Source: Gloeocapsa sp. PCC 7428 (GTDB lineage Bacteria > Cyanobacteriota > Cyanobacteriia > Cyanobacteriales > Chroococcidiopsidaceae). Taken from it: a DNA stretch of 64,000 bases. Positions 25,992 to 37,990 of the stretch are shown in pieces. The stretch is taken from assembly GCF_000317555.1 (NCBI RefSeq), contig NC_019745.1:4154001-4218000 (forward strand), in the 5' to 3' direction. The translations under genes and the position numbers were made by a program. Under the pieces are notes generated by a model. It did not search any database and was not told where the DNA came from. It was given only the letters and a program-made list of their open reading frames with translations. Within the stretch, counting starts at the first letter, position 1; every line of letters starts with the position of its first letter.

Positions 25992-26068
<77 letters not shown>

Positions 26069-26124: not shown

Positions 26125-26883
26125 TTAGTGCATATAAGATGCTCCATTAATGTCAATCGTTGTCCCAGTCATGTGAGGGGCTAACCCAGAAGCTAGAAAA
26201 GCAATAACATTAGCTACATCTTGCGGTGGAGCAATTTTACCTAAGGGAATATCGCGCGTAACAGCTGCTTCGCCGTACTCTTGAATAAACTCGTCTACCA
26301 TCTCAGTTTTGACAAAACCAGGCGCAACCGCAAAAGCAAGAATATTATCAGCGGCAAATCCCCGTGCGATACTGCGCGTTAAAGCAATAACGCCACCTTT
26401 TGAGGCAGCGTAGTGGATATAATCTGGAGCGTCACCGCGAAAGGCTGCACGACTCGCAAGATTAATAATAATTCCACCAGCGCGATCGCGAAAGTGTCCA
26501 ATCGCTGCGCGGCATAAATCAGCAACCGCTATTAAGTTAACTTGTAAAGTTGTTTGCCATGCGCTACTCCAAAGATGGAGATCGTCATCAATCCCAGCCG
26601 ATTGAATAATTCCCGCGTTGTTGACCAATACATCGATTTGCCCGCGCCAAGCGATCGCTTGATGCCATAAAGTTTGACTCGCATTCTGAACAGCAAGATC
26701 GGCTTGTACTAAGAAACAGCGATCGTCACTGATTTCTTTGGCAAGTGCTTGGGCAGAGGAGTGCGCTCGACTGTAATGTAAAATCACGTAAGCTCCAGCT
26801 TGGGCAAGTGTCAATACCGTTGTGGCACCAATTCCGCGCGATCCTCCTGTCACTAAAATCACTTTGTCCTGTAAATTGATCAT
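26125..26883 (-). CDS. SDR family oxidoreductase (FabG-like)
   Basis: A 252-residue classical short-chain dehydrogenase/reductase. NAD(P)-binding motif VTGGSRGIGA (residues 10-19), NNAG (about 89-92), the catalytic Ser region INLASRAAF and Tyr-x3-Lys in YIHYAASKGG are all present. A good AGGAGG site precedes ATG 26883. It resembles 3-oxoacyl-ACP reductases, but the substrate cannot be told. It is the last ordinary gene before the phage-like island. Confidence 0.88.
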   Translation of the reverse strand: MINLQDKVILVTGGSRGIGATTVLTLAQAGAYVILHYSRAHSSAQALAKEISDDRCFLVQADLAVQNASQTLWHQAIAWRGQIDVLVNNAGIIQSAGIDDDLHLWSSAWQTTLQVNLIAVADLCRAAIGHFRDRAGGIIINLASRAAFRGDAPDYIHYAASKGGVIALTRSIARGFAADNILAFAVAPGFVKTEMVDEFIQEYGEAAVTRDIPLGKIAPPQDVANVIAFLASGLAPHMTGTTIDINGASYMH

Positions 26884-26949
26884 GAATCCTCCTCGGAGTG
26901 CTAATTGCTAATCGCTTTCATAAAATTTTGTTCTATGCTGGAATCCCCA

Positions 26950-27420
26950 CTAAGTACTGTAGTAAACTGCAAGTGGAATTTGTTGAATACCCGCGTCGCG
27001 AAATTCCTGCATGAGTTGGCAAAATAAGTCCCAATGCGCTTGCTGTGGGATGACAATGCACCCCGCGCTCCCTGGCACATTCGCATCAAAATGAATGCCA
27101 AAATCCCCGCGCGTCACGCTACCGAGTTGCACCGAAAAAGGTGCGATCGCATAAAACGAGCCTTCGACGCCTTTGACGTGCGGCAACCACAGTCTTTGCG
27201 TGCTAACAGTGTATTTGTGCGCCCCAATCGCCCCACTCGGTGGCAGCGGTCCTCGTCTCTTGCGCGTCCAAGACCCCGCACATTGATGCCCTACGGTACC
27301 GCTAGTGGCAAGCATCTTAATTCCCGCGTCTTGGGGACGGCGCTTGATCAAGAGATAGCCATAAATGAGTGATAATCGCGGATTAAGTGGTAGCTGTAAG
27401 TAAAACTCGATGCTAGGCAT
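26950..27420 (-). CDS. YkuD-like Cys/His protein, putative lysis enzyme
   Basis: A 156-residue protein. The region GDFGIHFDANVPGSAGCIVI carries His110 and Cys121 in an order that resembles the catalytic H...S-x-G-C motif of L,D-transpeptidases (YkuD), although the spacing is short and the SHGC His is replaced by Ala. The upstream SFYAIAPFSVQLGSVTRGDFGIH reads like the strand before that motif. A wall-active role (phage lysis) is inferred from this motif plus two small membrane proteins just upstream. The start at 27420 overlaps the stop of the preceding gene, giving translational coupling; a start at 27465 is possible. Last gene of the island's minus-strand operon. Confidence 0.55.
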   Translation of the reverse strand: MPSIEFYLQLPLNPRLSLIYGYLLIKRRPQDAGIKMLATSGTVGHQCAGSWTRKRRGPLPPSGAIGAHKYTVSTQRLWLPHVKGVEGSFYAIAPFSVQLGSVTRGDFGIHFDANVPGSAGCIVIPQQAHWDLFCQLMQEFRDAGIQQIPLAVYYST

Positions 27421-27580
27421 CCGCACCTCCGCGCATCGAATAGCCGATATAGCCGCTGGTTGCAATTTTGGCTAGATCCAAAAACAGCGCTTGTAGTTCA
27501 ACGTTGCGCATCGCCAAAAAGAACGATCCACACACCAGGGCAACGCACAACGTAAAAATTCCCGATGTGGTCTTATTCAT
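27413..27580 (-). CDS. Small membrane protein, holin-like
   Basis: A 55-residue protein with one clear N-terminal membrane helix (GIFTLCVALVCGSFFLAM) and a second weaker hydrophobic stretch. Its start overlaps the preceding gene by 8 bp and its stop overlaps the next start, so it belongs to the operon. Size and place before a possible wall enzyme suggest a holin, but no holin family is recognised. Confidence 0.5.
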   Translation of the reverse strand: MNKTTSGIFTLCVALVCGSFFLAMRNVELQALFLDLAKIATSGYIGYSMRGGADA

Positions 27581-27833
27581 GCGTCCCTCCGCGCAGCGAC
27601 GCGTAAAACATCCCCTTAAGTTCGAGCAATTGACTTTGAACGCCGTCAAAGCGCGAGTCCATCTCTTTGGCAATAAATTTAAGATTCTCGCTTAGCTGCT
27701 CTTGGTTATTTCGCAGGTGGTTAAATTCGCGCTTCTGCGCGTAGTTCGTTTCAACGCTTGAGCGATACCACGCCAAAACTCCGCCCAAAAACGTCACCGC
27801 ACCGATTAGGGTGCCAAGCATTTCAAGTCCCAT
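27573..27833 (-). CDS. Small membrane protein with coiled coil
   Basis: An 86-residue protein: N-terminal membrane helix (MLGTLIGAVTFLGGVLAWY), then a charged heptad-like helix (FNHLRNNQEQLSENLKFIAKEMDSRFDGVQSQLLELKGMFYASL). This N-in, single-helix plus coiled-coil plan is frequent in phage holin or spanin accessory proteins. Gap to the upstream gene is 5 bp. Function is inferred from position only. Confidence 0.55.
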   Translation of the reverse strand: MGLEMLGTLIGAVTFLGGVLAWYRSSVETNYAQKREFNHLRNNQEQLSENLKFIAKEMDSRFDGVQSQLLELKGMFYASLRGGTHE

Positions 27834-27838
27834 AATTC

Positions 27839-28318
27839 TTAACTCGATAAAGCATCGACCTTGGTTTCGAGCCGCGCTAAATCAACCTTCACCGTGTCGA
27901 GTAATTCCTCAAGCTGTTCGGCATAAACGCCGGTGTATTCCCAAATCGTTAAACGCAAATCGCGCATCCAGTACGGCGGCTCAAAAACCAGTTCGTAATC
28001 ACTCGATAGCCACGGCAGGCGGATCACCTCGGTGCGGTTGAGCCGCAGTCCCTTGGAATAGGTAACGGCGGGCGTACTATTAAACGCGGTGTTGACGATA
28101 CTGACGCGCTGCGAGAGCGTTCCTGCAAACCGCCAGCGCGATTTCGCACTTGGTGATAGCGTCCGCACTCGAATAATCGGAGTATTGAGCAGGATGCCGA
28201 CTTCAAACGCGGCAATCGGGTCGTAGGCAGTTTGTGTAATTGGCACCGCGCTGCGCGATTCGTCAAGCACTTCACCCCAGTTATTGGGATTTGCGAGGTC
28301 AACCGTAAGCTGACTCAT
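27839..28318 (-). CDS. Island protein of unknown function
   Basis: A 159-residue protein I do not recognise. It is mostly beta-like in composition, with Trp/Tyr-rich strands (LPWLSSDYELVFEPPYWMRDLRLTIWEYTG), and ends in a short heptad helix (EQLEELLDTVKVDLARLETKVDAL). The ATG at 28318 lies 1 bp after the upstream stop. A C-terminal coiled coil on a beta-rich body is seen in phage fibres and baseplate parts, but this is only a suggestion. Confidence 0.6.
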   Translation of the reverse strand: MSQLTVDLANPNNWGEVLDESRSAVPITQTAYDPIAAFEVGILLNTPIIRVRTLSPSAKSRWRFAGTLSQRVSIVNTAFNSTPAVTYSKGLRLNRTEVIRLPWLSSDYELVFEPPYWMRDLRLTIWEYTGVYAEQLEELLDTVKVDLARLETKVDALSS

Positions 28319-28319
28319 G

Positions 28320-28547
28320 TCAATACACAAGAGCTAAATTGTCGATTGCGGCGGTCAAAAATTGGTCGATATCCACGCCGCACGTTTCCAGAATGTCTAC
28401 GTAGTCGGAAAAATTAATTCGCCCAGCGATGAATTGATTCAGTGCCAGCGCAGTTGTTTCAAACCGCATTGCGGCATCTAAGAATTCATCGCTGTTCTCA
28501 TTTGTCCCGACCACGAACTGGGGGCTAATAATTTGATCGAGGTGCAT
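28320..28547 (-). CDS. Small island protein of unknown function
   Basis: A 75-residue acidic protein, apparently helical (NENSDEFLDAAMRFETTALALNQFIAGRINFSDYVDILETCGVDIDQFLTAAID). It sits with gaps of 1 and 5 bp between two other operon genes, which is the main argument that it is real. The pattern with a central FSDYVDIL resembles short helical packing or chaperone proteins; no family is recognised. Confidence 0.55.
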   Translation of the reverse strand: MHLDQIISPQFVVGTNENSDEFLDAAMRFETTALALNQFIAGRINFSDYVDILETCGVDIDQFLTAAIDNLALVY

Positions 28548-28552
28548 AGCGC

Positions 28553-29125
28553 TTAGCGGAAGACTTCGGGAGTAAAGCTAACGCTACGGGTATTTCCTTC
28601 GAGGACTTTGGCGCGAATTTCATCCATAACTGTTGCAAACGAGCGGTCGTCGCCAGTCGCTTTAGCACCGAACGGTAGCGTATAGGTTCGATTACCCTTC
28701 TTGATGTACCTTCTGCCGGTGATTTTAGAGTTATCTGAGCCAGTTCCTGAACCTAAAAGAGTCACGTGCGCTTGTGCAGGTTTGAAGGCGCGACGGACGA
28801 CGGCTAAATTCAACTCTGTCGAAACGTTCAACTCAGTCGTTGAAAGACCGGTGACATTGATATTGCTGATCGCGCGCTGCGATACCGGCACAATCAGTTT
28901 TGGTCCACCTGGACGCGCAAACGGTAATATAGCTAATTCATCAATGCGCCCAGGCTTGGAAGCGGCAGCGCGCGTATAGGAGATAGAGCGTTCGCCTGCA
29001 ACCCATTCTTGGTAGCGCCGTAGTTGGCTACCTGCGGGAGCTTGTGGGTTGACTCCAGTACCGTCGTCGCTCGTAGATCTTAAATAATTAAGCGCTGCTT
29101 CTAAATTTTTAAATCGTTTAGCCAT
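28553..29125 (-). CDS. Island protein of unknown function, basic and beta-rich
   Basis: A 190-residue protein, basic, with many short Thr/Val/Ser-rich strands (ISNINVTGLSTTELNVSTELNLAVVRRAF) and a helical C-terminus. I do not recognise it. Its size, charge and operon position would allow a structural (coat-like) role, but there is no direct evidence. It is separated from the upstream gene by 96 bp holding a short palindrome. Confidence 0.6.
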   Translation of the reverse strand: MAKRFKNLEAALNYLRSTSDDGTGVNPQAPAGSQLRRYQEWVAGERSISYTRAAASKPGRIDELAILPFARPGGPKLIVPVSQRAISNINVTGLSTTELNVSTELNLAVVRRAFKPAQAHVTLLGSGTGSDNSKITGRRYIKKGNRTYTLPFGAKATGDDRSFATVMDEIRAKVLEGNTRSVSFTPEVFR

Positions 29126-29188
29126 AATCTATAAATCTTTCTATGCGACCGCGATTCTAGCCACGACATAAGGCGGCTAAAACCTCAC

Positions 29189-29206
29189 GGAACCCTTAAG
29201 GGTTCC
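29189..29206 (-). promoter_or_regulatory. Palindrome between two island genes
   Basis: GGAACCCTTAAGGGTTCC is a perfect 18-base palindrome in the only sizeable gap of the minus-strand operon. It would give a 7-bp stem with a 4-base loop in mRNA. It could separate expression of the first two genes from the rest, or be a binding site. Confidence 0.45.
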
Positions 29207-29221
29207 ACACCAAATACGTAG

Positions 29222-30022
29222 CTACGGCACGAAGTGAACCGGACGGTAGCGCGAGCCGGTGCGATCTACTAAGCAAATTGGGTCAGAGATACCGCGAACG
29301 ATCAAATCTGCATAAGCAAACCGCACATAGCCGGTAGGTCGCCAGCGGCGCTTTTTATAGCTTTTCCCTAAAATTGCCTGATTGCTTGTGATGTTGTCTG
29401 ACGCTTTTTTTGGCTCAGTGATGCGGAAATTATCTTCCTCAAAAACATCACCTTGAATATCGAGTACCTTCTTAATAACTTGTTCGCCTTCGGTTGCATT
29501 TAAAGCATAGATTTGTAAGTCATATCCTTTAGCTGCATCTTTATACCAGCAAATGTATTTGCCTTTACTCCAGCGATAGCCATTGTTAAGCGCAAATTCC
29601 AAGCGAATTTTATTAGCTAAAGCTTTATATTTTGCTTCAGTTATTGATTCCGCAGTTTCATCAATGCGAAAAGTAATTTGCGCGTCGAGCGGTGCGTAAT
29701 TATCAGGAACTGAATCAAGATCTTGCTTGAAATAAAGTTGAATTTGACATTTGTATTTGATTTGCGCATCGTCAAAATTTTCTTTTAAAACGCCAACAAC
29801 TGTAGGCTTGAACGGTAATTTTAGAACGCGGTCGTAGAAGAACCGCATTTTGCTATCTGCGGTCAATCGACTATCTTTAGCCGTGATTAAACACAAATCG
29901 CGGACTGCAAGTCGATTGGGGAAGTTGTCAATATCGCGAAAGTGCCGGTAAACTTCGGCATTGTATCCAATTGTTGGCGCGCGTAAGAATTTGCGTTGCC
30001 GCGCCCAAGAGAGATCGGGCAT
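29222..30022 (-). CDS. Island protein of unknown function
   Basis: A 266-residue protein, rich in Lys, Tyr, Trp and Phe, with alternating short strands (YKCQIQLYFKQDL, DAQITFRIDE, GKYICWYKDAAKGYDLQIYAL) and a basic C-terminus (KKRRWRPTGYVRFAYADLIVRG). No family is recognised. Its ATG overlaps the stop of the 787-residue gene by one base (TAATG), so the two are translationally coupled and likely work together. Confidence 0.65.
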   Translation of the reverse strand: MPDLSWARQRKFLRAPTIGYNAEVYRHFRDIDNFPNRLAVRDLCLITAKDSRLTADSKMRFFYDRVLKLPFKPTVVGVLKENFDDAQIKYKCQIQLYFKQDLDSVPDNYAPLDAQITFRIDETAESITEAKYKALANKIRLEFALNNGYRWSKGKYICWYKDAAKGYDLQIYALNATEGEQVIKKVLDIQGDVFEEDNFRITEPKKASDNITSNQAILGKSYKKRRWRPTGYVRFAYADLIVRGISDPICLVDRTGSRYRPVHFVP

Positions 30023-32385
30023 TAAAATATATCCTCCAAGCTAAAGTTGGGCAGGTCTAAGCCTTCTTCTTCTGCATCGCGGTCAGCTTTAGCCGCAGCG
30101 TTCGCCGCTGTTACCGCTGTTTGAATCGTCGCGGCGTTTTCTTTGATTTCGTTCGCAGTTTCGACGATATTGCGCGCCGAGGATGTAATGTTTTCTAAGT
30201 CTTCAAACACGTTCTCAACAGTTTCTAACCCTTCAGCAATGCGCTGTAGCCTGCCAAAATACTTGCCTTTTGGTCTTTGATTGGGATCTTTGTAATTCCA
30301 GTTGTCTTCGCCAATAAGTCCTTCGTCTTGCAGTCCGTTACCGAGTTCGGCGACCCAGTTGCGCGTTGTTTCGTTGATGTTTTGCGTCTCTTCAAAGATG
30401 TCGCGGACGTTGCCAAATACTTGCGCGCCAGTGTTATAGATTGTGCTGTAGGCTTTCCACTGCGCCTTGATTGCCGTCCACTCGGTTGCGCCGAATAAAT
30501 TGCTGAAATAACTGTCGAGGTATTTTGTAAAAACATCCTGCGTGTTGATCGTGTCTGCATTGGGGTCTTTGATTAATGCAGGGATGGCAAACAAGTTATC
30601 CATGCATTCAAAGAACGTGTCTTTAATGCTTGTTGAAAGCATCATGCAGTTGTGAATCACGCCTGCCATCGTCACAAGGTTGACGACGCGATCTACACCA
30701 GCACTGCTGATAAACCCGTTGATGGCTTGTGAAATCGAACCGAACGCAGCAACATCCCCAACTTTGGTGTTGAGCAATTTCACGCCGTCGTCGATGTTTT
30801 TTAGTAGTACGCCTTGCGCAGCTTGCGTTGCGGCATCGAGTTTCTGCACAATGTCGTCGAGCTTGTTGTTCATGCTCGGCAATGGGTTACCGGAGCATTT
30901 GTTATTACCCGATAGCGCTTGACACGTCGCGTCACCAACAATCGCCCCTAACTTTTCTTGCGTCGCGGGTTGCGATAGCGCGGTGCCAATCGCAGCGGGA
31001 ATTAAAAGCCCAGTTTGGTCGGGAATATTATTAATTGCTTCGGTAATGCCTGGCAGTGCAACTGTTGTTTGATTAACTTGTTGCCCAATTTGTTGAAGCG
31101 GTGCAGCAAGCTCAAGTTGAATATTGTTTTGAACGTTTTGTAATTGTTGTTGAATGTCAGGAATTGATTGTTGAATTGTTGTTGCTTGTTGCCCGATTTG
31201 TTGAATTGGGGCGGCAAGTTGTTGTTGAATATTATCTTGAATGTTTTGTAATTGTTGTTGAACGTTGTTATTGGCTTGTTGAATTTGTTGAATTGGGTTT
31301 GATTCATTGAGTGCGGTACCAACTGCGCTGGGGATTACTTGTTGAATTTGATTAGGAATATTCGTAACAACTTCACCAAGTCCAGGGAAACTCAGTTGAA
31401 TTTCATCAAGTTTCGGGAGAACTTGATTATTAATTTGTTGTTGAACTTGCGGCAGTGTCTGCGCGATTGGTTGCGTTGTGGCGTTGACTGTTTGTTCGAG
31501 TTGTTGAACGTTTTGTTGAATCTGTTGCGTTGTTGTGTTGACGGTTTGTTCGACTTGTTGGACGTTTTGTTGAATTTGTTGGACGGGTTGCGATTGCCCC
31601 ACGGCGTGCGCAGCGGCGTGGTGCGGCTGGTCTGCAAAGATTGTGGGTACAGGTGTACCCACGGGGACTTCGCGCGGGGCGCGGTCAACTTCAATAGGCG
31701 TTGTCGGGTCGCCGGTTAGCAGCGTGTCGCCAGTGGTGTTTTGACCAAAGCTATCTTGTAGCGTACCCGTGGGCGGTCGGGAAGCAATGAAGTCTTTCCA
31801 GTTGGTATCGGTGAGCGTATCGACGATTTCTTGGCGCTGTTGCGGCGTCAAGTCTTCCCATTTGGGCGGCGGTGCAGGGCAGCCGTTAGTACTTGTTTCA
31901 CTCGTTAGTATGCAATACCGACTAATTGATGCTAATTGATAAAGGTTTGATACAACTCGAAGATTATTTGCGTCATAGATGGCGGATCTAGGGTTGCCAT
32001 TGTAGTCACCGATCCGAAACGGTGGTTTGGCTTGGACTCCTATTTGAGTGTTGAAAACAAATTTATCGGTTCCTAGCCCTTGCGTTTCATAGATTCCTTC
32101 GATGCGGTATCGTCCTGGCGTTGTTGGTTGAATTTGGCAGATGCCCGCACTGGGATTTGTGGCGCAGTAGACTTGCTTAACAAAGTCTACAAGTTGGTTG
32201 CGCGTTGGCTCGTCAAGGAGCAAGTACGCGGCTTGACCGACCATCACCGCACCAACGACAACTTTGGCTTGCGGCGGGAGTGACGTGGCGGGATTGATTA
32301 GTGAGGGTAAAAGACGTTGTTTAACGAAGTTAATAACGGCGGCACCGCCTGGACCATTGAGAACAACTGGTAAAGTTAACCCCAT
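30022..32385 (-). CDS. Large Gln-rich coiled-coil repeat protein of the island
   Basis: A 787-residue protein, first gene of the minus-strand operon, not recognised. Residues 1-250: hydrophobic start (VVVGAVMVGQAAYLLLDE) and a Cys-containing domain. Residues 265-440: Gln-rich coiled coil with internal repeats, a 22-residue unit twice (PVQQIQQNVQQVEQTVN; QQIQQNVQQLEQTVN) and a unit of about 100 residues twice, each with a NIP(N/D)Q ... IP(S/A)A(V/I)GTAL block (at about 342-359 and 453-470) and a QQLQN(I/V)Q(D/N)NIQ segment. Residues 500-690: globular, with hydrophobic helices and Cys pairs. Residues 710-770: charged helix. Length and architecture recall tape-measure or fibre proteins of phages, by analogy only. 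Confidence 0.7.
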   Translation of the reverse strand: MGLTLPVVLNGPGGAAVINFVKQRLLPSLINPATSLPPQAKVVVGAVMVGQAAYLLLDEPTRNQLVDFVKQVYCATNPSAGICQIQPTTPGRYRIEGIYETQGLGTDKFVFNTQIGVQAKPPFRIGDYNGNPRSAIYDANNLRVVSNLYQLASISRYCILTSETSTNGCPAPPPKWEDLTPQQRQEIVDTLTDTNWKDFIASRPPTGTLQDSFGQNTTGDTLLTGDPTTPIEVDRAPREVPVGTPVPTIFADQPHHAAAHAVGQSQPVQQIQQNVQQVEQTVNTTTQQIQQNVQQLEQTVNATTQPIAQTLPQVQQQINNQVLPKLDEIQLSFPGLGEVVTNIPNQIQQVIPSAVGTALNESNPIQQIQQANNNVQQQLQNIQDNIQQQLAAPIQQIGQQATTIQQSIPDIQQQLQNVQNNIQLELAAPLQQIGQQVNQTTVALPGITEAINNIPDQTGLLIPAAIGTALSQPATQEKLGAIVGDATCQALSGNNKCSGNPLPSMNNKLDDIVQKLDAATQAAQGVLLKNIDDGVKLLNTKVGDVAAFGSISQAINGFISSAGVDRVVNLVTMAGVIHNCMMLSTSIKDTFFECMDNLFAIPALIKDPNADTINTQDVFTKYLDSYFSNLFGATEWTAIKAQWKAYSTIYNTGAQVFGNVRDIFEETQNINETTRNWVAELGNGLQDEGLIGEDNWNYKDPNQRPKGKYFGRLQRIAEGLETVENVFEDLENITSSARNIVETANEIKENAATIQTAVTAANAAAKADRDAEEEGLDLPNFSLEDIF

Positions 32386-32387
32386 AG

Positions 32388-32574
32388 AATTACTGATTGT
32401 TTTACCTTCGTTCTAATCAAGAAATAAATATCAGTAATTATTCTGCTTTTATGTAAATCCGGTAGCTTACTGATGGAGTTCAAAGCATTGCTGTGCCATT
32501 AATTGATGAGTTTTTATTTAATAGCTAATACTTCAATCATTCCACTTTTACCTATTAGTTAGATAAAAGCAGAA
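32388..32574. promoter_or_regulatory. Nested inverted repeats in the divergent island promoter region
   Basis: Two perfect inverted repeats lie between the divergent 787-residue gene and the recombinase: AATTACTGAT (32388-32397) with ATCAGTAATT (32430-32439), and TTCTGCTTTTAT (32441-32452) with ATAAAAGCAGAA (32563-32574). The first would form a hairpin right before the start codon of the minus-strand gene. The second pair, 110 bp apart and next to the recombinase gene, could be recombinase or regulator binding arms. Confidence 0.5.
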
Positions 32575-32607
32575 GTCGATCGTCAGGGCAAATCTGGAAG
32601 GTGCAAT

Positions 32608-33186
32608 ATGAAGAATAATCGTCACGGGCAAGCGGCAATTTTTAGCGATGCGGATTATGTGAAAGTGCGGCGATCAATTGCGAATAAAAAGCATCGATTG
32701 CTATTTGATATCGCGCGCTACACCGGCGAACGCTGGGGAGCGATTGTGCAGCTGCAAGTGAGTGATGTATTTGATGATAATGGAGTGCGATCGCATATCA
32801 CTTTCCGCGCAATCACGCGCAAAGCATCAACGCGCGGCATCCGCACGACGCGCCAGGTTCCCGTGCATCCCGAACTACGCGAGATTTTAGAAAAATATGG
32901 CTGCCCTAAAACTCGCTGGCTATTTCCGAGTCCGGTGGACGAGGAGACACATATCACTTTAAGAGCAGCTGATTTGATGCTGCGCGGTGCGGTCGAACGC
33001 GCTTACCTGGCACACAAAGGCTACAGCACACATTCAACGCGCCGCACGTTCATTACGACGCTCTACCGCAAAGGCGTTGATATCCACACGATTCAACTAA
33101 TCACGGGGCATCAAGATCTAAAATCGCTGATTCGCTATATCGAGGTCGATCCGGAGCGCACGCGAAGTGCGATCGCGCTTCTTTAG
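32608..33186 (+). CDS. Short tyrosine recombinase/integrase (catalytic domain only)
   Basis: A 192-residue tyrosine recombinase that lacks the usual N-terminal DNA-binding domain. The catalytic set is complete: Arg42 in YTGERWGA, His142-x2-Arg145 in THSTRRTF, His168 in TGHQDL and the nucleophile Tyr177 in IRYIEVD. A Lys in the beta-hairpin (RK at about 71-72) could be the fifth residue. It would catalyse site-specific integration or excision of the island, or resolve its dimers. Its 3' end overlaps an opposite-strand zinc-ribbon gene by 86 bp. Confidence 0.85.
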   Translation: MKNNRHGQAAIFSDADYVKVRRSIANKKHRLLFDIARYTGERWGAIVQLQVSDVFDDNGVRSHITFRAITRKASTRGIRTTRQVPVHPELREILEKYGCPKTRWLFPSPVDEETHITLRAADLMLRGAVERAYLAHKGYSTHSTRRTFITTLYRKGVDIHTIQLITGHQDLKSLIRYIEVDPERTRSAIALL

Positions 33187-33319
33187 AATGGCGCAGAAAA
33201 ATGATGCCGCAGTCCCAGCAGTACGATTCAAGTGCCGATTCGTGCGTCCAGGTATTATGCGACGCGCAGTAGGGGCACGGCTGACCGGAAAATAGCAGTT
33301 CAGGGTCTGATGAGTCCAT
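33101..33319 (-). CDS. Small zinc-ribbon protein
   Basis: A 72-residue protein with two CxxC knuckles, CPYCASHNTWTHES and CWDCGIIF, forming a zinc ribbon (residues about 15-40). The start overlaps the end of the upstream zinc-ribbon gene by 20 bp in another frame, suggesting coupling. The C-terminal part overlaps the recombinase gene on the other strand, but the ribbon itself lies outside that overlap, which argues that it is a true gene. Role (DNA or RNA binding, regulation) unknown. Confidence 0.6.
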   Translation of the reverse strand: MDSSDPELLFSGQPCPYCASHNTWTHESALESYCWDCGIIFLRHSKEARSHFACAPDRPRYSESAILDLDAP

Positions 33320-33740
33320 TTTTAATCAGCGCTTTGATGGCAACGGGGGTATCGCCTCTTTTTATAGCTTCTGTTACTTGCTCTTGTAGTGCGATCGCGC
33401 GCTCGTTCGCAGTGTTGCCGCCAGGAATGTGAACGTGATGCAATTTCTGTTTTTCCATCCACACGTATCGGTAATAAACGTGTTTCTTTTTGTTCGAGGG
33501 CGAGTAAGTTTCGACCCAGTGAATGTGTTCTGGAGTAGATTTTGAGTTTACTCCAGAACTGTCTTGAGTTACTCCAGAACTTATATCGGTTGGTTCTGGA
33601 GTAGAAAGTAAATTCTGATATTCAGGAGTCCAGGGTAGAAATTCTCTTTTACAATCAGGGCAGTAGGCGCAGTCTAACCCAATAATTAAGCGCTCATGCT
33701 GACACACACGAGCGCTAACACATACAGTTGTGGCAGTCAT
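33300..33740 (-). CDS. Zinc-ribbon-like island protein
   Basis: A 146-residue protein. The N-terminal part, CQHERLIIGLDCAYCPDCKREF, contains a Cys/His cluster of zinc-ribbon type. A linker (residues about 42-75) has two STPE and two SSGV repeats encoded by alternating 10-bp DNA repeats. The C-terminal part (HVYYRYVWMEKQKLHHVHIPGGN) is basic and aromatic, followed by a helix (ALQEQVTEAIKRGDTPVAIKALIKNG). A DNA-associated role is plausible. The start at 33740 was chosen because the longer frame from 33788 runs through a perfect hairpin. Confidence 0.65.
   Translation of the reverse strand: MTATTVCVSARVCQHERLIIGLDCAYCPDCKREFLPWTPEYQNLLSTPEPTDISSGVTQDSSGVNSKSTPEHIHWVETYSPSNKKKHVYYRYVWMEKQKLHHVHIPGGNTANERAIALQEQVTEAIKRGDTPVAIKALIKNGLIRP
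33528..33603. repeat. Four alternating copies of a 10-bp element
   Basis: TTCTGGAGTA at 33528-33537 and 33594-33603 and its complement TACTCCAGAA at 33549-33558 and 33570-33579 occur within 76 bp, inside the zinc-ribbon gene. The arrangement is forward, reverse, reverse, forward. Confidence 0.8.
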
Positions 33741-33765
33741 ATGATGTAAATGGTTTTTTGGTTTT

Positions 33766-33800
33766 AACTGCCAATGGATTTTTAGCATCCATTGGCAGTT
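33766..33800 (+). terminator. Perfect 14-bp stem hairpin
   Basis: AACTGCCAATGGAT (33766-33779) pairs with ATCCATTGGCAGTT (33787-33800) around a 7-base loop, and TTCTTC follows on the plus strand. It can work as a terminator for plus-strand transcripts coming from the recombinase side or as part of a small RNA. Confidence 0.55.
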
Positions 33801-33826
33801 TTCTTCAGTGATTTAGCGTCAACCGA

Positions 33827-33898
33827 AGCAAAATGTTTTTTTTGCTCATCCCTCCTTAATTCACAACGTCCACTGCGCCATGAAGCGCAGTTTTTATT
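33827..33898 (+). terminator. Second and third hairpin with T-run
   Basis: AGCAAAA (33827-33833) pairs with TTTTGCT (33840-33846). Further on, CTGCGC (33873-33878) pairs with GCGCAG (33885-33890) and is followed by TTTTTATTT, a standard intrinsic terminator on the plus strand. No plus-strand protein gene lies immediately upstream, so it may end a small RNA or the recombinase transcript, and also insulates the convergent repressor. Confidence 0.6.
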
Positions 33899-33914
33899 TG
33901 CAGGATGCACATTT

Positions 33915-34145
33915 TTAGTTGTGGCTGATCGGTGGTCCAAAATCATCAGGCAATTGGTCTGCTGTAATCTCTAGCACCTTAAGCAGGGTCTTAAACTGAC
34001 GGACAGTTAGCTTTGGTATTGCCCTTCCCCTTTCCCAATTCGCCACAGTGTTTTCTGTAACACCTAAAGCATCCGCAAGTTCCTTTTGGGTTATATGCCT
34101 GAGTGTCCTTAGTCTCATAAGAGGTGATAAAGGCTTTTTTGTCAT
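33915..34145 (-). CDS. XRE/Cro-cI-type repressor
   Basis: A 76-residue helix-turn-helix protein. The HTH spans about residues 18-40 (TQKELADALGVTENTVANWERGRAIPKL), the classical XRE signature. It is divergent to the small gene at 34392, and the region between holds three matching 18-bp operators, so it is very probably the regulator of the island, as phage repressors are. It has no peptidase domain for self-cleavage, so induction would need another route. Confidence 0.88.
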   Translation of the reverse strand: MTKKPLSPLMRLRTLRHITQKELADALGVTENTVANWERGRAIPKLTVRQFKTLLKVLEITADQLPDDFGPPISHN

Positions 34146-34149
34146 TTTA

Positions 34150-34167
34150 CCCTAAATTAATTTTGCC
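34150..34167. promoter_or_regulatory. Operator O1 for the XRE repressor
   Basis: CCCTAAATTAATTTTGCC, one of three sites of form CCCYAAA-N4-TTT-N-GSS. It starts 5 bp before the repressor start codon. A weaker related sequence, GCCTAATTTGATTGACGC, overlaps it at 34165-34182. Confidence 0.65.
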
Positions 34168-34185
34168 TAATTTGATTGACGCTTT

Positions 34186-34203
34186 CCCCAAATTGGTTTA
34201 GGC
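34186..34203. promoter_or_regulatory. Operator O2 for the XRE repressor
   Basis: CCCCAAATTGGTTTAGGC, centre 36 bp from O1. It lies between a possible plus-strand -35 (TTGACG, 34176-34181) and a weak -10 (TAGGCT, 34199-34204), where bound repressor would block transcription of the plus-strand genes. Confidence 0.65.
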
Positions 34204-34215
34204 TAAAAGTTGTTA

Positions 34216-34233
34216 CCCTAAATGAGTTTGGGG
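34216..34233. promoter_or_regulatory. Operator O3 for the XRE repressor
   Basis: CCCTAAATGAGTTTGGGG, centre 30 bp from O2. Together the three sites cover the divergent control region. A separate perfect palindrome, CATTCCAAGGAATG, follows at 34257-34270. Confidence 0.65.
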
Positions 34234-34391
34234 AAAAGAAACGAAAAAAACGCAGGCATTCCAAGGAATGGATGCCCACGAAATGACTGCGTTTGCATTC
34301 AGTTTCTCACTTGTGCCGCAAAACCCGTAAGCCGTCGCGTCGCTGGGTAGGCTCAAGGAGACACTTGCCCACAACCAACAACCAAAAAGCC

Positions 34392-34808
34392 ATGAGTCAA
34401 GACGAATTGCGCGCCTTGCGCGAACGCGTTGCTGAATTAGAGCAACAACTTAAAGCTGCGGAAAATACGATTAAGCGCGCTAAAAATCCCGACCCCGTTG
34501 AGCGTCCAACGCTAAAGCGCGTTCTCAAACTTGTTCGCGATGCGTGTATGACGCTCGTTCGCACCGCCTCTGGCTGGGTATTGAGTCTCGGTAACAAACA
34601 GCGCAAGTTTAGGCGGCTATTCGATATTTGGGAATTACTGCTAGTTGACGACTGGTTGCTGAGCGAGATCTTTCCAGAGTCAGAACAACCGCGCCCCCGA
34701 AGTCGCAAAGCCGCGCAGCCAAGATTGCCGCATCGCAACGAAGCGATCGCGCCGTCGTACCAAGTTGCCTGGTGGCAAGGGCGCGTTTACCAAAAGGCGT
34801 ACGGATAA
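34392..34808 (+). CDS. Island protein with N-terminal coiled coil
   Basis: A 138-residue protein of unknown function. The first 30 residues form a heptad helix (ELRALRERVAELEQQLKAAENTIKRAK), the middle is basic and helical (LKRVLKLVRDACMTLVRTASGWVLSLGNKQRKFRRLFDIWELL), and the end is Arg/Pro-rich. It is the first gene to the right of the operators. Start chosen at ATG 34392 because the sequence before it (from a TTG at 34293) is not protein-like. It could be an early regulatory or DNA-binding protein. Confidence 0.6.
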   Translation: MSQDELRALRERVAELEQQLKAAENTIKRAKNPDPVERPTLKRVLKLVRDACMTLVRTASGWVLSLGNKQRKFRRLFDIWELLLVDDWLLSEIFPESEQPRPRSRKAAQPRLPHRNEAIAPSYQVAWWQGRVYQKAYG

Positions 34809-35056
34809 TGAAAATACTTGCATTACCAGGAGGTGAGTTCATCAATCTTGAACTCGTGCGCCGAATCGAAACCGAACTCGATCCACCCGTCGCGCGCATA
34901 ATTTGGGCGCGGGATGAAACGCGCGTTTATCACGCAGAACGTGCGAGTGCGATTATTGAAGCTCTAAACGAAGATCTGTCCTGCTGGGATCTTATTGATA
35001 AGCGTCCCAAACCGCCAGCAGCAAAGTCATCAGATCCTGGCGACATCCCCTTCTAG
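34808..35056 (+). CDS. Small island protein, unknown
   Basis: An 82-residue protein starting in a TAATG overlap with the upstream gene, so the two are coupled. It has an alpha/beta pattern (MKILALPGGEFINLELVRRIE, VARIIWARDETRVYHAERASAIIEALNED) and a Pro/Lys-rich C-terminus ending in DPGDIPF. The short acidic tail resembles C-terminal tips of single-strand DNA-binding proteins in general form only. No family is recognised. Confidence 0.6.
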   Translation: MKILALPGGEFINLELVRRIETELDPPVARIIWARDETRVYHAERASAIIEALNEDLSCWDLIDKRPKPPAAKSSDPGDIPF

Positions 35057-35305
35057 CCGCCTGACGAGCCAGCAACGGCGAAACGGGGTTTACCCGTCGC
35101 GGCTTGGGTCCAAACCTTGCAGCAGCCACGCAGCGTAACAGCACTTGATGCTGGAGCGGGGTTTTTATCCCTTAATCTCTTCTTGGAATTGCTGGATTAT
35201 TGCTGCGTAGCTTACCCCTAGCCTTTGAGAGTGGATTGAGCCAAAAGCTCTAGGGAGATTCAGAAGGCACGACAACGGGGTTTTACGTTACATCCCCATT
35301 AACTC
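35057..35305 (+). ncRNA. Structured non-coding region, candidate bridge-type RNA
   Basis: This 249-bp stretch has no reading frame. Hairpins seen: a composite stem AGCC/GGCT (35067-35070 with 35101-35104), GCG/CGC (35078-35080 with 35098-35100) and ACGGG/CCCGT (35083-35087 with 35093-35097, loop GTTTA); CAGCA/TGCTG (35139-35153) followed by a T-run at about 35162; and CCCTAG/CTAGGG (35216-35221 with 35250-35255). It lies directly before an IS110-like recombinase gene. IS110-group elements encode a bridge RNA in this position, which guides recombination. Whether this stretch is transcribed as such is inference. Confidence 0.4.
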
Positions 35306-36511
35306 ATGAAAATAGTTGGTTTAGACGTTGGTAGCGCCAGCGTCGTAGCTTGCTGCCTGGAAGCATTACCACTTCCTCTCAAGCCGTTTTTTGCTGCGCA
35401 TAAAAGCGCGATTGTTGAGTTTCCCGCGACGCGCTCCGGTATCGCCGCGTTACTCGCCGTTAAACCCGATATTGCCATCCTCGAACCAACCGGAATGCAC
35501 TACGCCGAATTTTGGCAGCGCGCATTAACCGTTGAAGGCGTCGAAGTCCGCTACGTCGGGCACGTCCAGGTTCGCGCCTACCGGAAGTTGCACCGCCTGC
35601 CGAATAAAAACGATCGTGCCGATGCCTTAGCACTCGCGGCTTACGGCTGGCAATACATTGATAATCCAGAATTCTTTTTGCGGTTTGTGCCGAAGAGCGC
35701 ATTACACCTGCGCCGTTGCGTCATGCAATTGGCGCACTTGAATCGCATCACCACCCCAATCATCAACTGCACGCGCCAGTATCTCGCGCACGAATTTCCC
35801 GAAGTCGCCAAGATGCGATCATTGCGGAAAGTACGTGACGACCTACCGCCGTTGTGGGGTTGGTTGAGCGGCGATCGCGCATCGCCCTACTACGATCGCC
35901 TGTGGAAAAAGTCGGTCGCGCATGAATATGGATTAGAAATCTCTGAGTTTACAATCCATCAATCAAAGCGCATTTGCGATTTAGAGCGTCATCAAGACAG
36001 GATTGAGCAAGAGATTTTGACGTTACTTCAGAAAAGCGATTTTGCAATTTACTGCCGAGTATTCGATTCTTTTGGTTTTGGAGTGCGATCGCGTGCGGTG
36101 TTGCTGTCGCACATTTACCCATTTGAAGATTTTTTGAACCAAGATAATCAACCCGTGATTGAGTGGGGAGAATCAAAGTCGGGTAGAGCCACAAAACGCG
36201 ATCGCTCGTTACGCGCGTTCAAATTACGCATTGGTATGGGGCTTGTTGAAGATTCATCAGGACAATCGACCAACTGGGTACCTGGCGGTAGCAGTTTGTG
36301 CAGACAAGCGCTGTGGCAGTGGTGTTTGTGTCAGGTTGAACCGCGCCGAGGACGACACACTGATACTGTGCGGCTTTTAGGCGAGTATCTCGATGAATTA
36401 AAGGCAAGTCAACTGCCAGGAAAGTTAGCCCAACTGCGGACTTGTGCCAAAGCCGCGACGCTACTTTACAGGAGGCTACTGCAAGCTTTTAGTCAGAAGG
36501 AGCTAGAGTAG
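35306..36511 (+). CDS. IS110-like DEDD transposase/recombinase
   Basis: A 401-residue protein with the IS110/Piv plan. The RuvC-like N-terminal domain shows the DEDD set: Asp7 in GLDVGSASVV, Glu60 in ILEPTG, Asp103 and Asp106 in NKNDRADALALA. The C-terminal Tnp-type domain is divergent but traceable (FGFGVRSRAVLLSHIYPFEDF; SLRAFKLRIGMG; VPGGSSLCRQALWQW), with Ser329/Ser330 candidates for the nucleophile. Known relatives are transposases and the Piv DNA invertase. The protein is longer in the middle (residues 120-250) than typical IS110 enzymes. No terminal repeats or target duplications are evident. It may be an island function (integration or inversion) rather than a separate insertion sequence. 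Confidence 0.75.
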   Translation: MKIVGLDVGSASVVACCLEALPLPLKPFFAAHKSAIVEFPATRSGIAALLAVKPDIAILEPTGMHYAEFWQRALTVEGVEVRYVGHVQVRAYRKLHRLPNKNDRADALALAAYGWQYIDNPEFFLRFVPKSALHLRRCVMQLAHLNRITTPIINCTRQYLAHEFPEVAKMRSLRKVRDDLPPLWGWLSGDRASPYYDRLWKKSVAHEYGLEISEFTIHQSKRICDLERHQDRIEQEILTLLQKSDFAIYCRVFDSFGFGVRSRAVLLSHIYPFEDFLNQDNQPVIEWGESKSGRATKRDRSLRAFKLRIGMGLVEDSSGQSTNWVPGGSSLCRQALWQWCLCQVEPRRGRHTDTVRLLGEYLDELKASQLPGKLAQLRTCAKAATLLYRRLLQAFSQKELE

Positions 36512-36544
36512 AAGAGAAAGCATCCGAGTTATTCGCATTTAATC

Positions 36545-37990
36545 ATGGCTGTTCAGTTGCGGCGACCAATTTTAGTGGGTGGAGTAGGCTTATCCTTCTC
36601 TTTGTGGATATTACAAAGCTGGCACCACTCTATTGTGCAACTAGGTGAGTATGGCATTCTAGGCGCGATCGCAGTTGGTGGAACTTTGTGGTTATTCCAG
36701 CAAAAAACGCCAAAACGACAAAGTATCGATAACTCACCTGTCACGCGAGAAACCGTAGAAAAAGCGATCGCGCAAGCAGCAAGTGCGATCGAACGCTTGG
36801 CAGTTGAAGCCAAAGAACCCGCGCAACTGCGTCAACAACTTATTCAACTCAATAAGGAATTTGAACGCCAGGAATTACGCGTAGCCATTATAGGTGGTAA
36901 AGCTGTTGGCAAAACAAAACTTGTGCAAGCGTTGAACCAACTATCATTTGGGCAGCAATTAACTTTTCAGGAAACCCCCGCATTATTTACAAGTACTGAT
37001 AGCGATCGCCAAGCAGAAACAACGGCACTCGTGCAAGCAAATGCTGCTGATTTGGTGTTATTTGTAACAAATGGCGACCTCACAGAAACGGAATTTCAAA
37101 CTTTACAGCAGTTGATCGCCGTCAATCGACAACGCACTTTACTTGTGTTTAATAAGCAAGATCAACACATCGCTGAAGAACGTGCTGTAGTGTTACACGC
37201 CTTACAACAGCGAATGCAAACGTTACTCAAACCCGAAGATACCGTCGCGATCGCGGCGTCGCCGAGTGAAATTAAAGTGCGCCAACACGCGGTGGATGGT
37301 GCGATTCAAGAATGGCGAGAACAACCCGCACCCGCAATTGAGCAACTGAGCGATCGCCTAGCAACAATTGCGACGCAAGAAAGACAACAACTCATTTGGG
37401 CGACGACACAACGTCAGGCGTTAGCGCTAAAAGCCGAAGCGAAAACACTACTAAATGGTGTCAGACGCGATCGCGCGATTGCGATCATTGAACAGTACCA
37501 ATGGATTGCAGCAGCGGCGGCGTTTGCGAATCCAGTTCCTGCGCTCGATCTCCTTGCAACCGCCGCAATTAATGCCCAGCTAGTCACCGAATTAGGCGCG
37601 ATCTATCAGCAGAAATTCTCGCTGCAACAAGCCCAAACTGTCGCTGGCACAATGGGAAGTTTGATGGTGAAGTTAGGCTTAGTCGAACTTTCGACAAAAG
37701 CTGTGAGTACAGTGTTAAAAAGTAATGCAGTAACTTTTGTTGCAGGTGGGGCAGTACAAGGAGTGAGTGCCGCGTATCTCACTCATTTAGCAGGTTTAAG
37801 TTTAGTTGAGTACTTTCAATCGCAGGAAGTTGCTATTGACTCTGAGAAACTCAATTTAGACAAGTTGAGCCAAACTTTACAAAAGGTATTTCAGCAAAAT
37901 CAGCAGGTGACTTTCCTACAAGGCTTTGTTAAGCAAGGCGTCGAGCGTTTGTTACAAAAACCACCTCAACCGCAACTTGCTGAATCATAG
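36545..37990 (+). CDS. DUF697-type GTPase-like membrane protein
   Basis: A 481-residue cyanobacterial protein: N-terminal membrane segments (about residues 8-55), a GTPase domain with P-loop GGKAVGKTKL (about 117-126) and NKQD (G4, about 200), and a C-terminal DUF697-like hydrophobic domain (about 320-430). The usual G3 motif DTPG is replaced by ETPALFTSTDSD, so GTP hydrolysis may be lost or altered. A related gene with a normal G3 follows at 38657. These proteins are thought to act at membranes, but no role is established. Confidence 0.8.
   Translation: MAVQLRRPILVGGVGLSFSLWILQSWHHSIVQLGEYGILGAIAVGGTLWLFQQKTPKRQSIDNSPVTRETVEKAIAQAASAIERLAVEAKEPAQLRQQLIQLNKEFERQELRVAIIGGKAVGKTKLVQALNQLSFGQQLTFQETPALFTSTDSDRQAETTALVQANAADLVLFVTNGDLTETEFQTLQQLIAVNRQRTLLVFNKQDQHIAEERAVVLHALQQRMQTLLKPEDTVAIAASPSEIKVRQHAVDGAIQEWREQPAPAIEQLSDRLATIATQERQQLIWATTQRQALALKAEAKTLLNGVRRDRAIAIIEQYQWIAAAAAFANPVPALDLLATAAINAQLVTELGAIYQQKFSLQQAQTVAGTMGSLMVKLGLVELSTKAVSTVLKSNAVTFVAGGAVQGVSAAYLTHLAGLSLVEYFQSQEVAIDSEKLNLDKLSQTLQKVFQQNQQVTFLQGFVKQGVERLLQKPPQPQLAES

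What the first reader, a model, noticed from the sequence alone, without database searches (positions are those of the whole stretch)
35057..36511. Candidate bridge-RNA-like region before an IS110-like recombinase
The 249-bp non-coding stretch carries several hairpins (35067-35104, 35139-35153, 35216-35255) and precedes a DEDD protein with D7/E60/D103/D106. In the IS110 group, the non-coding left end upstream of the recombinase encodes a guide (bridge) RNA. Here the recombinase is longer than usual and embedded in a phage-like island, which would be an unusual use of an RNA-guided recombinase.
Basis: partly seen in the sequence, partly recalled or inferred. Interest (0 to 1): 0.8.

Follow-up and report, generated by a model that had tools for sequence, protein, structure and literature searches.

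The report
Hammerhead-linked bridge RNA in prophage-like island
A 9.6-kb virus-like island in a cyanobacterium carries an IS110-type recombinase plus a guide RNA whose two pairs of guide sequences spell out both the island's own ends and the site it was inserted into, and that RNA is preceded by a hammerhead-type self-cutting RNA motif; the same arrangement recurs in dozens of other cyanobacteria.

Summary
The gene at 35306-36511 is an IS110-family DEDD recombinase (NCBIfam NF051857, 461 bits, cutoff 180; profile matches IS621 and ISCro4). Sister genomes lack exactly one segment, 26941-36510 (9,570 bp); the recombinase stop codon runs into its right edge. The 249-bp non-coding region encodes a bridge-type RNA. 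Its first loop carries ATGCTGGA and TCTCTTC, which together spell the 13-nt empty site ATGCTGGAAGAGA, overlapping at a GA core. Its second loop matches the island's two ends. In related cyanobacterial elements (8-19 kb, same gene order), ends picked by motif, without using the guides, matched their own RNA at 7/8 or better in 20 of 21 left and 22 of 23 right flanks; 0 of 20,000 random pairings did as well. Three near-identical elements in one genome carry different guides, each matching its own site. The RNA is preceded by a complete, covarying hammerhead consensus (model built without the window: E=3e-9), which probably frees the guide RNA from an operon transcript. Known kind (bridge RNA), new variant: hammerhead-linked, GA core, RNA about 8 kb from the left end, prophage-like cargo. 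Cleavage, transposition and virus status are untested.

The parts
26941..36510 (+). whole mobile element (one copy of the GA core included), 9,570 bp
   Evidence: absent as one block from sister genomes L031/L040 (G001), L032/L041 (G002), L033 (G004)
26935..26942 (+). left target half-site ATGCTGGA (last GA = core)
   Evidence: identical to LTG; empty site CTATGCTGGAAGAGAAAGC in L033
26941..26949 (+). left end (LE) GAATCCCCA
   Evidence: same motif marks the left end of the related elements
26950..32385 (-). block of uncharacterised virus-like genes (holin-like 27573-27833; others unassigned)
   Evidence: conserved order in related elements; only weak or no PHROG/Pfam hits
32608..33186 (+). 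short tyrosine recombinase (192 aa), conserved cargo gene
   Evidence: Pfam PF00589 E=1.5e-18; found in 16 of 18 elements
33915..34145 (-). Cro/C1-type HTH regulator
   Evidence: Pfam HTH_3 7.7e-12
34392..35056 (+). two small overlapping ORFs (34392-34808, 34808-35056) upstream of the ribozyme motif, conserved in some related elements
35054..35105 (+). hammerhead-type motif; predicted cleavage between C35098 and G35099
   Evidence: leave-window-out covariance model 41.6 bits, E=3.3e-9; covariation
35099..35268 (+). bridge-type guide RNA (5' end at predicted cleavage site; 3' end not mapped)
   Evidence: two-loop architecture conserved
35148..35155 (+). left target guide ATGCTGGA
   Evidence: 8/8 with left target
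35176..35182 (+). right target guide TCTCTTC
   Evidence: reverse complement of right target GAAGAGA, 7/7
35228..35235 (+). left donor guide AGAGTGGA
   Evidence: 7/8 (8/8 with a wobble pair) to right end AGAGTAGA; covaries with the right end in relatives
35254..35261 (+). right donor guide GGAGATTC
   Evidence: reverse complement of left end GAATCCCC with one mismatch
35306..36511 (+). IS110-family DEDD recombinase, 401 aa
   Evidence: NF051857 460.7 bits; catalytic residues conserved
36505..36512 (+). right end (RE) AGAGTAGA with core GA; overlaps the recombinase stop codon
36511..36517 (+). right target half-site GAAGAGA

Best explanation
The island is a prophage-like mobile element that chooses its chromosomal site by RNA. 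A transcript running through the small genes at 34392-35056 is cut by a hammerhead-type motif after C35098, releasing a bridge RNA whose first loop pairs with the host target (ATGCTGGA / GAAGAGA, core GA) and whose second loop pairs with the joined ends of the circular element (AGAGTAGA + GAATCCCC). The adjacent IS110-family DEDD recombinase, with both loops loaded, exchanges strands at the shared GA core and inserts the 9.6-kb circle. Shown by sequence: element boundaries, empty site, complementarity of all four guides, guide-site covariation across relatives, hammerhead consensus with covariation, recombinase family and residues. Inferred: transcription, cleavage, circular intermediate, catalysis, and that the cargo is a virus.
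For: Exact empty sites in same-genus genomes. In the window the target pair matches 8/8 and 7/7, against 1 of 127,940 positions by chance and 0 of 20,000 shuffled regions. No intact 13-mer target is left in the genome. In relatives, ends chosen by motif without using the guides: left 20/21 and right 22/23 at 7/8 or better, mean 7.3 and 7.6 versus about 6.0 for foreign RNAs, 0/20,000 permutations. Donor guide matches at least 7 of 8 right-end letters in 22/22 and follows its sequence variants. Three elements of one genome, 97-99.7% identical over most of their length, have different guides, each fitting its own site; for one pair 9/12 guide positions differ versus 7/237 elsewhere. A motif-only scan of 84,980 species found 36 loci: 33 followed by the recombinase, 17 of 19 testable right flanks at 7/8 or better, 27 of the 30 loci searched there carrying the hammerhead model. 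The family profile matches the IS621 and ISCro4 recombinases. Guide geometry is that of Durrant et al. 2024 (PMC11208160).
Against: No transcript, cleavage or recombination data. Folding energy is not exceptional. Rfam's hammerhead models do not reach threshold in the window (best 21.6 of 48.5 bits). About a third of the first set of homologous loci lack a recognisable hammerhead, so it is not essential to the guide RNA. A second recombinase (tyrosine type) is nearly always present. Two misfits: L111 and L170 right flanks. The C-terminal Pfam domain of IS110 was not detected, although its SG motif is conserved.
Confidence: 0.92

Rival explanations
1. The island is integrated by its short tyrosine recombinase (32608-33186); the IS110 gene and RNA are a passenger insertion sequence that landed in it.
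For: The tyrosine recombinase has a Pfam integrase domain and is in 16 of 18 delimited elements.
Against: The junctions share only 3 bp. The element's outermost ends, 9.6 kb apart, are what the IS110 guide RNA recognises, and the IS110 gene lies at the right edge in every delimited relative.
Confidence: 0.04
2. The RNA guides, but the hammerhead motif is inactive or serves only to separate mRNAs, not to mature the guide RNA.
For: Guide RNAs without the hammerhead exist in the same family with matching guides (L099, L112, L120, L122, L130). Cleavage was not tested.
Against: Catalytic-core letters are kept in the 25 structurally parsed examples (one has UA in place of UC at the cleavage site, still a permitted UH) while stems vary freely with compensation; it sits directly at the 5' boundary of the guide RNA, and no promoter-like sequence was found between the upstream ORFs and the RNA.
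Confidence: 0.2
3. The conserved upstream structure is a cis-regulatory leader of the recombinase mRNA and complementarity to ends and targets is coincidence.
For: It lies immediately 5' of the gene.
Against: Guide-site matches hold in tens of unrelated sites with permutation controls and change together in sister copies.
Confidence: 0.005

Closest known systems
IS621 / ISCro4 bridge RNA-recombinase systems (IS110 family; PMC11208160, PMC11208158)
   Same: DEDD-Ser recombinase; non-coding RNA upstream of the gene; target and donor read by separate loops; LTG like the left top strand, RTG complementary to the right top strand, overlapping at a 2-nt core
   Different: 401 instead of 328-341 aa; GA core instead of CT; RNA sits about 8 kb from the left end, so it is not next to the RE-LE junction promoter; hammerhead motif at its 5' side; mobilises 8-19 kb gene clusters instead of a bare insertion sequence
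Filamentous proviruses with a terminal IS110-family transposase (Thermus phiOH16/Zuza phages, Neisseria Nf; PMC11437467)
   Same: IS110-family gene at one end of an integrated virus, proposed to integrate and excise it
   Different: no guide RNA was described in the passages read; the cargo genes here have no recognisable inovirus (or other known phage) relatives
Bacterial hammerhead ribozymes near prophage integrase genes (PMC3088659)
   Same: hammerhead core, phage-like context next to an integration gene, proposed processing of long transcripts
   Different: not linked there to IS110 recombinases or to a guide RNA
VIPR guide arrays with interspersed hammerheads (preprint PMC13142463)
   Same: hammerheads placed beside guide RNAs in a mobile-element context
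   Different: different protein, different RNA and code, DNA recognition rather than recombination

Membership tests
IS110-family recombinase | DEDD RuvC-like catalytic domain | tested here: met
   Pfam PF01548 above cutoff; NF051857 460.7 bits vs cutoff 180; D7/E60/D103/D106 conserved
IS110-family recombinase | C-terminal domain with catalytic Ser in the SG motif | tested here: met
   S318-G319 invariant in 36 homologues; that part aligns to ISCro4 with weak score
Bridge RNA system | non-coding RNA with two internal loops next to the recombinase | tested here: met
Bridge RNA system | target loop complementary to both strands of the insertion site, overlapping at the core | tested here: met
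Bridge RNA system | donor loop complementary to the element's two ends | tested here: met
   left donor guide in 22 elements; right donor guide GATTC plus one recurrent mismatch to the left-end motif GAATCCCC
Bridge RNA system | RNA bound by the recombinase, circular intermediate, reprogrammable recombination | not testable with these tools
   needs experiment
Bridge RNA system, IS621 subtype | CT core dinucleotide and RNA encoded in the left end | tested here: not met
   core is GA and RNA is about 8.2 kb from the left end; hence a variant, not an IS621-type insertion sequence
Hammerhead ribozyme | invariant core CUGANGA...GAAA...UH and three helices | tested here: met
   window and 24 other loci; junction is the minimum-energy fold; covariation score 0.795 vs 0.193 in shuffles
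Hammerhead ribozyme | Rfam curated score (an annotation threshold, not a defining feature) | tested here: not met
   best Rfam score in the window 21.6 bits, threshold 48.5; no hammerhead at gathering threshold in five relatives
Hammerhead ribozyme | self-cleavage | not testable with these tools
   needs in vitro transcription
Prophage of a known virus family | recognisable capsid, packaging or replication genes | tested here: inconclusive
   only integrase, HTH and weak holin-like hits; no IMG/VR hit for the proteins or RNA motif searched; single-sequence fold of one cargo protein unusable (pLDDT 42.5)

The most novel reading that the evidence does not exclude
These elements are a so far unrecognised family of cyanobacterial viruses (or satellites) that lysogenise by hammerhead-released bridge RNA, and their target guides are actively diversified so that successive elements can enter the same genome at different sites.
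Probability: 0.3. Interest if true: 0.93.

Novelty: new variant of a known kind. Interest (0 to 1): 0.82.

Why it matters
It shows, from natural sequence alone, RNA-guided integration of multi-gene virus-like cargo rather than of a bare insertion sequence, with tens of natural guide-site pairs that make the rules directly testable. It ties two RNA machines together, a hammerhead-type motif and a bridge RNA, which I found described together in no paper of the searched library. It suggests how a guide RNA can be made from an ordinary operon when the element's junction promoter is far away. It also offers many diverse recombinases with a different core dinucleotide, and a case of very fast guide change in near-identical elements whose mechanism is open.

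Tried and rejected
Exact-peptide scans of genome and viral contigs with the window recombinase and one relative found nothing; the profile version had no conserved stretch. The phage collection has no match for the recombinase. Minimum-energy folding gave no significant z-score and was not used as evidence. Rfam did not recognise the ribozyme motif. A single-sequence structure prediction of cargo protein 27839-28330 was too poor to search with. I considered integration at the nearby tRNA-Met (25992-26068) and rejected it: the empty-site junction is about 870 bp away, between the SDR gene and the GTPase gene. A parsing error in the first donor-loop script was corrected. The apparent misfit L139 is a right end directly followed by another left-end motif (GAATCCCC), probably tandem elements, not a failed match.

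Full report
What was claimed. The gap and the gene are as described. The gene belongs to NCBIfam NF051857 'IS110 family transposase' far above cutoff and to Pfam DEDD_Tnp_IS110. In 36 homologues E60, D103, D106 and S318-G319 are invariant and D7 nearly so. The family profile matches just two sets of solved structures, ISCro4 and IS621, both bridge-RNA recombinases.

Boundaries. Two genomes of the same genus (G001, G002) and one of the same family (G004) have the flanking genes side by side. Aligning them places one insertion between window positions about 26941 and 36512, with a 3-bp overlap. The empty site reads CTATGCTGGAAGAGAAAGC. The recombinase stop codon TAG runs into the right junction. 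The site lies between the start of an SDR gene and the start of a GTPase gene, not in the nearby tRNA-Met.

The guides. [quoted passage not shown] Here the first loop contains ATGCTGGA (35148-35155) and, 20 nt further, TCTCTTC (35176-35182), the complement of GAAGAGA. Together they spell ATGCTGGAAGAGA, the empty site, overlapping at GA. Only 1 of 127,940 window positions would match as well, and 0 of 20,000 shuffled regions. The intact 13-mer no longer exists in the genome; four one-mismatch sites are present elsewhere. The second loop contains AGAGTGGA (right end AGAGTAGA) and GGAGATTC (complement of left end GAATCCCC with one mismatch).

Relatives. 22 of 100 related and 48 of 388 class-level genomes carry the gene. 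I read the loci. The first left ends were found with the guides in mind; for the statistics the ends were then taken by motif alone, GAATCCCCA on the left and TA[AG]A[AG]TGA on the right. Left flanks matched their own RNA at 7/8 or better in 20 of 21 cases and right flanks in 22 of 23; foreign RNAs reached this in 21% and 17%; 0 of 20,000 random pairings equalled the observed means. The one failing left candidate is a second motif copy in L120, the failing right flank is L111. The donor guide tracks the variant right ends AGAGTGA, AAAGTGA and AGAATGA. Three elements of genome G266 are 97-99.7% identical over most of their length (88% in the recombinase region of one) but have different target guides, each fitting its own site 8/8; for one pair 9 of 12 guide positions differ against 7 of 237 others.

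Independent check. A DNA pattern taken from the donor loop alone, run over 84,980 species, gave 36 loci. 35 are in records with cyanobacterial titles; the other, a Silvanigrellales bin (L145), has neither the recombinase nor the hammerhead. 33 are followed by the recombinase, and 17 of 19 testable right flanks fit the guide at 7/8 or better against 8% of all pairings. A few of these loci are the same contigs as in the first set. IMG/VR has no match to the pattern.

The hammerhead-type motif. Directly after the stop codon of the upstream ORF comes AGCCGC-CUGACGA-GCC..GGC-GAAA-CGGG..CCCG-UC-GCGGCU, the full hammerhead core. A regular-expression scan marks it in 35 of 55 loci, and 25 of these could be parsed with all three helices. 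Helices II and III are 97-100% paired with up to five pair types per position; covariation score 0.795 versus 0.193 shuffled and 0.17 or less in slid registers. A model built without the window finds it at 35054-35105 with E=3.3e-9, the only hit with E<=0.001 in the genome, and finds it in 27 of the 30 motif-found loci searched. Rfam's own models stay below threshold, probably because stem I is short. A subgroup (L099, L112, L120, L122, L130 and others) has a plain hairpin instead.

Working model. The guide RNA lies about 8 kb from the left end, so the usual promoter formed by joined ends is not next to it, and no promoter-like site was found between the upstream ORFs and the RNA (cyanobacterial promoters may not fit that scan). 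Self-cleavage of an operon transcript would give the RNA a defined 5' end. This step is inferred. Recombination between the circular element and the GA target then follows as in IS621; inferred by homology.

The cargo. Delimited elements are 8-19 kb with a shared order: a block of unknown genes, a short tyrosine recombinase, small genes, an HTH regulator, then RNA and IS110 recombinase at the right end. Apart from integrase, HTH and weak holin-like hits nothing is recognisable. 'Phage-like' is therefore plausible but unproven. The tyrosine recombinase may act on the circular form; it does not explain the 3-bp junctions.

Known versus new. IS110-family genes at the end of integrated filamentous phages are known and were proposed to integrate them (PMC11437467). 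Hammerheads near prophage integrases are known (PMC3088659), and hammerheads between guide RNAs are reported for the unrelated VIPR system (PMC13142463). Searches for IS110 with hammerhead and for bridge RNA with prophage found no such description; subscription papers are mostly not covered.

Noticed in passing
L120, L122, L130 (genome G266); L102, L103 (G277): Near-identical elements within one genome differ most in their target guides; how guides change so fast is unexplained (selection, because a used site is gone, or some exchange process).
   Followed up: partly
L116, L119 (genome G283): The guide RNA region seems to hold three loop units instead of two, two of them target-like.
   Followed up: no
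L139 and L166 (contig JAHHGX010000010.1, Calothrix sp. FI2-JRJ7): A right end is followed directly by a left-end motif (GAATCCCC), suggesting tandem elements with a preserved RE-LE junction.
   Followed up: no
L063, L101, L109: The tyrosine recombinase plus the unknown gene block lies inverted relative to the other elements.
   Followed up: no
L105:388-614: HEARO RNA (RF02033, 141.8 bits) in the contig of a related element.
   Followed up: no
L061:1-77: End of a group II intron at the contig edge near a related element.
   Followed up: no
window 26883-36545: The island separates two divergently transcribed host genes (SDR and GTPase), ending about 34 bp before the GTPase start, so it may alter their expression.
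   Followed up: no
L173 (plasmid CP150887.1): A related element on a cyanobacterial plasmid, annotated only as transposase, site-specific integrase, HTH regulator and hypothetical proteins.
   Followed up: partly
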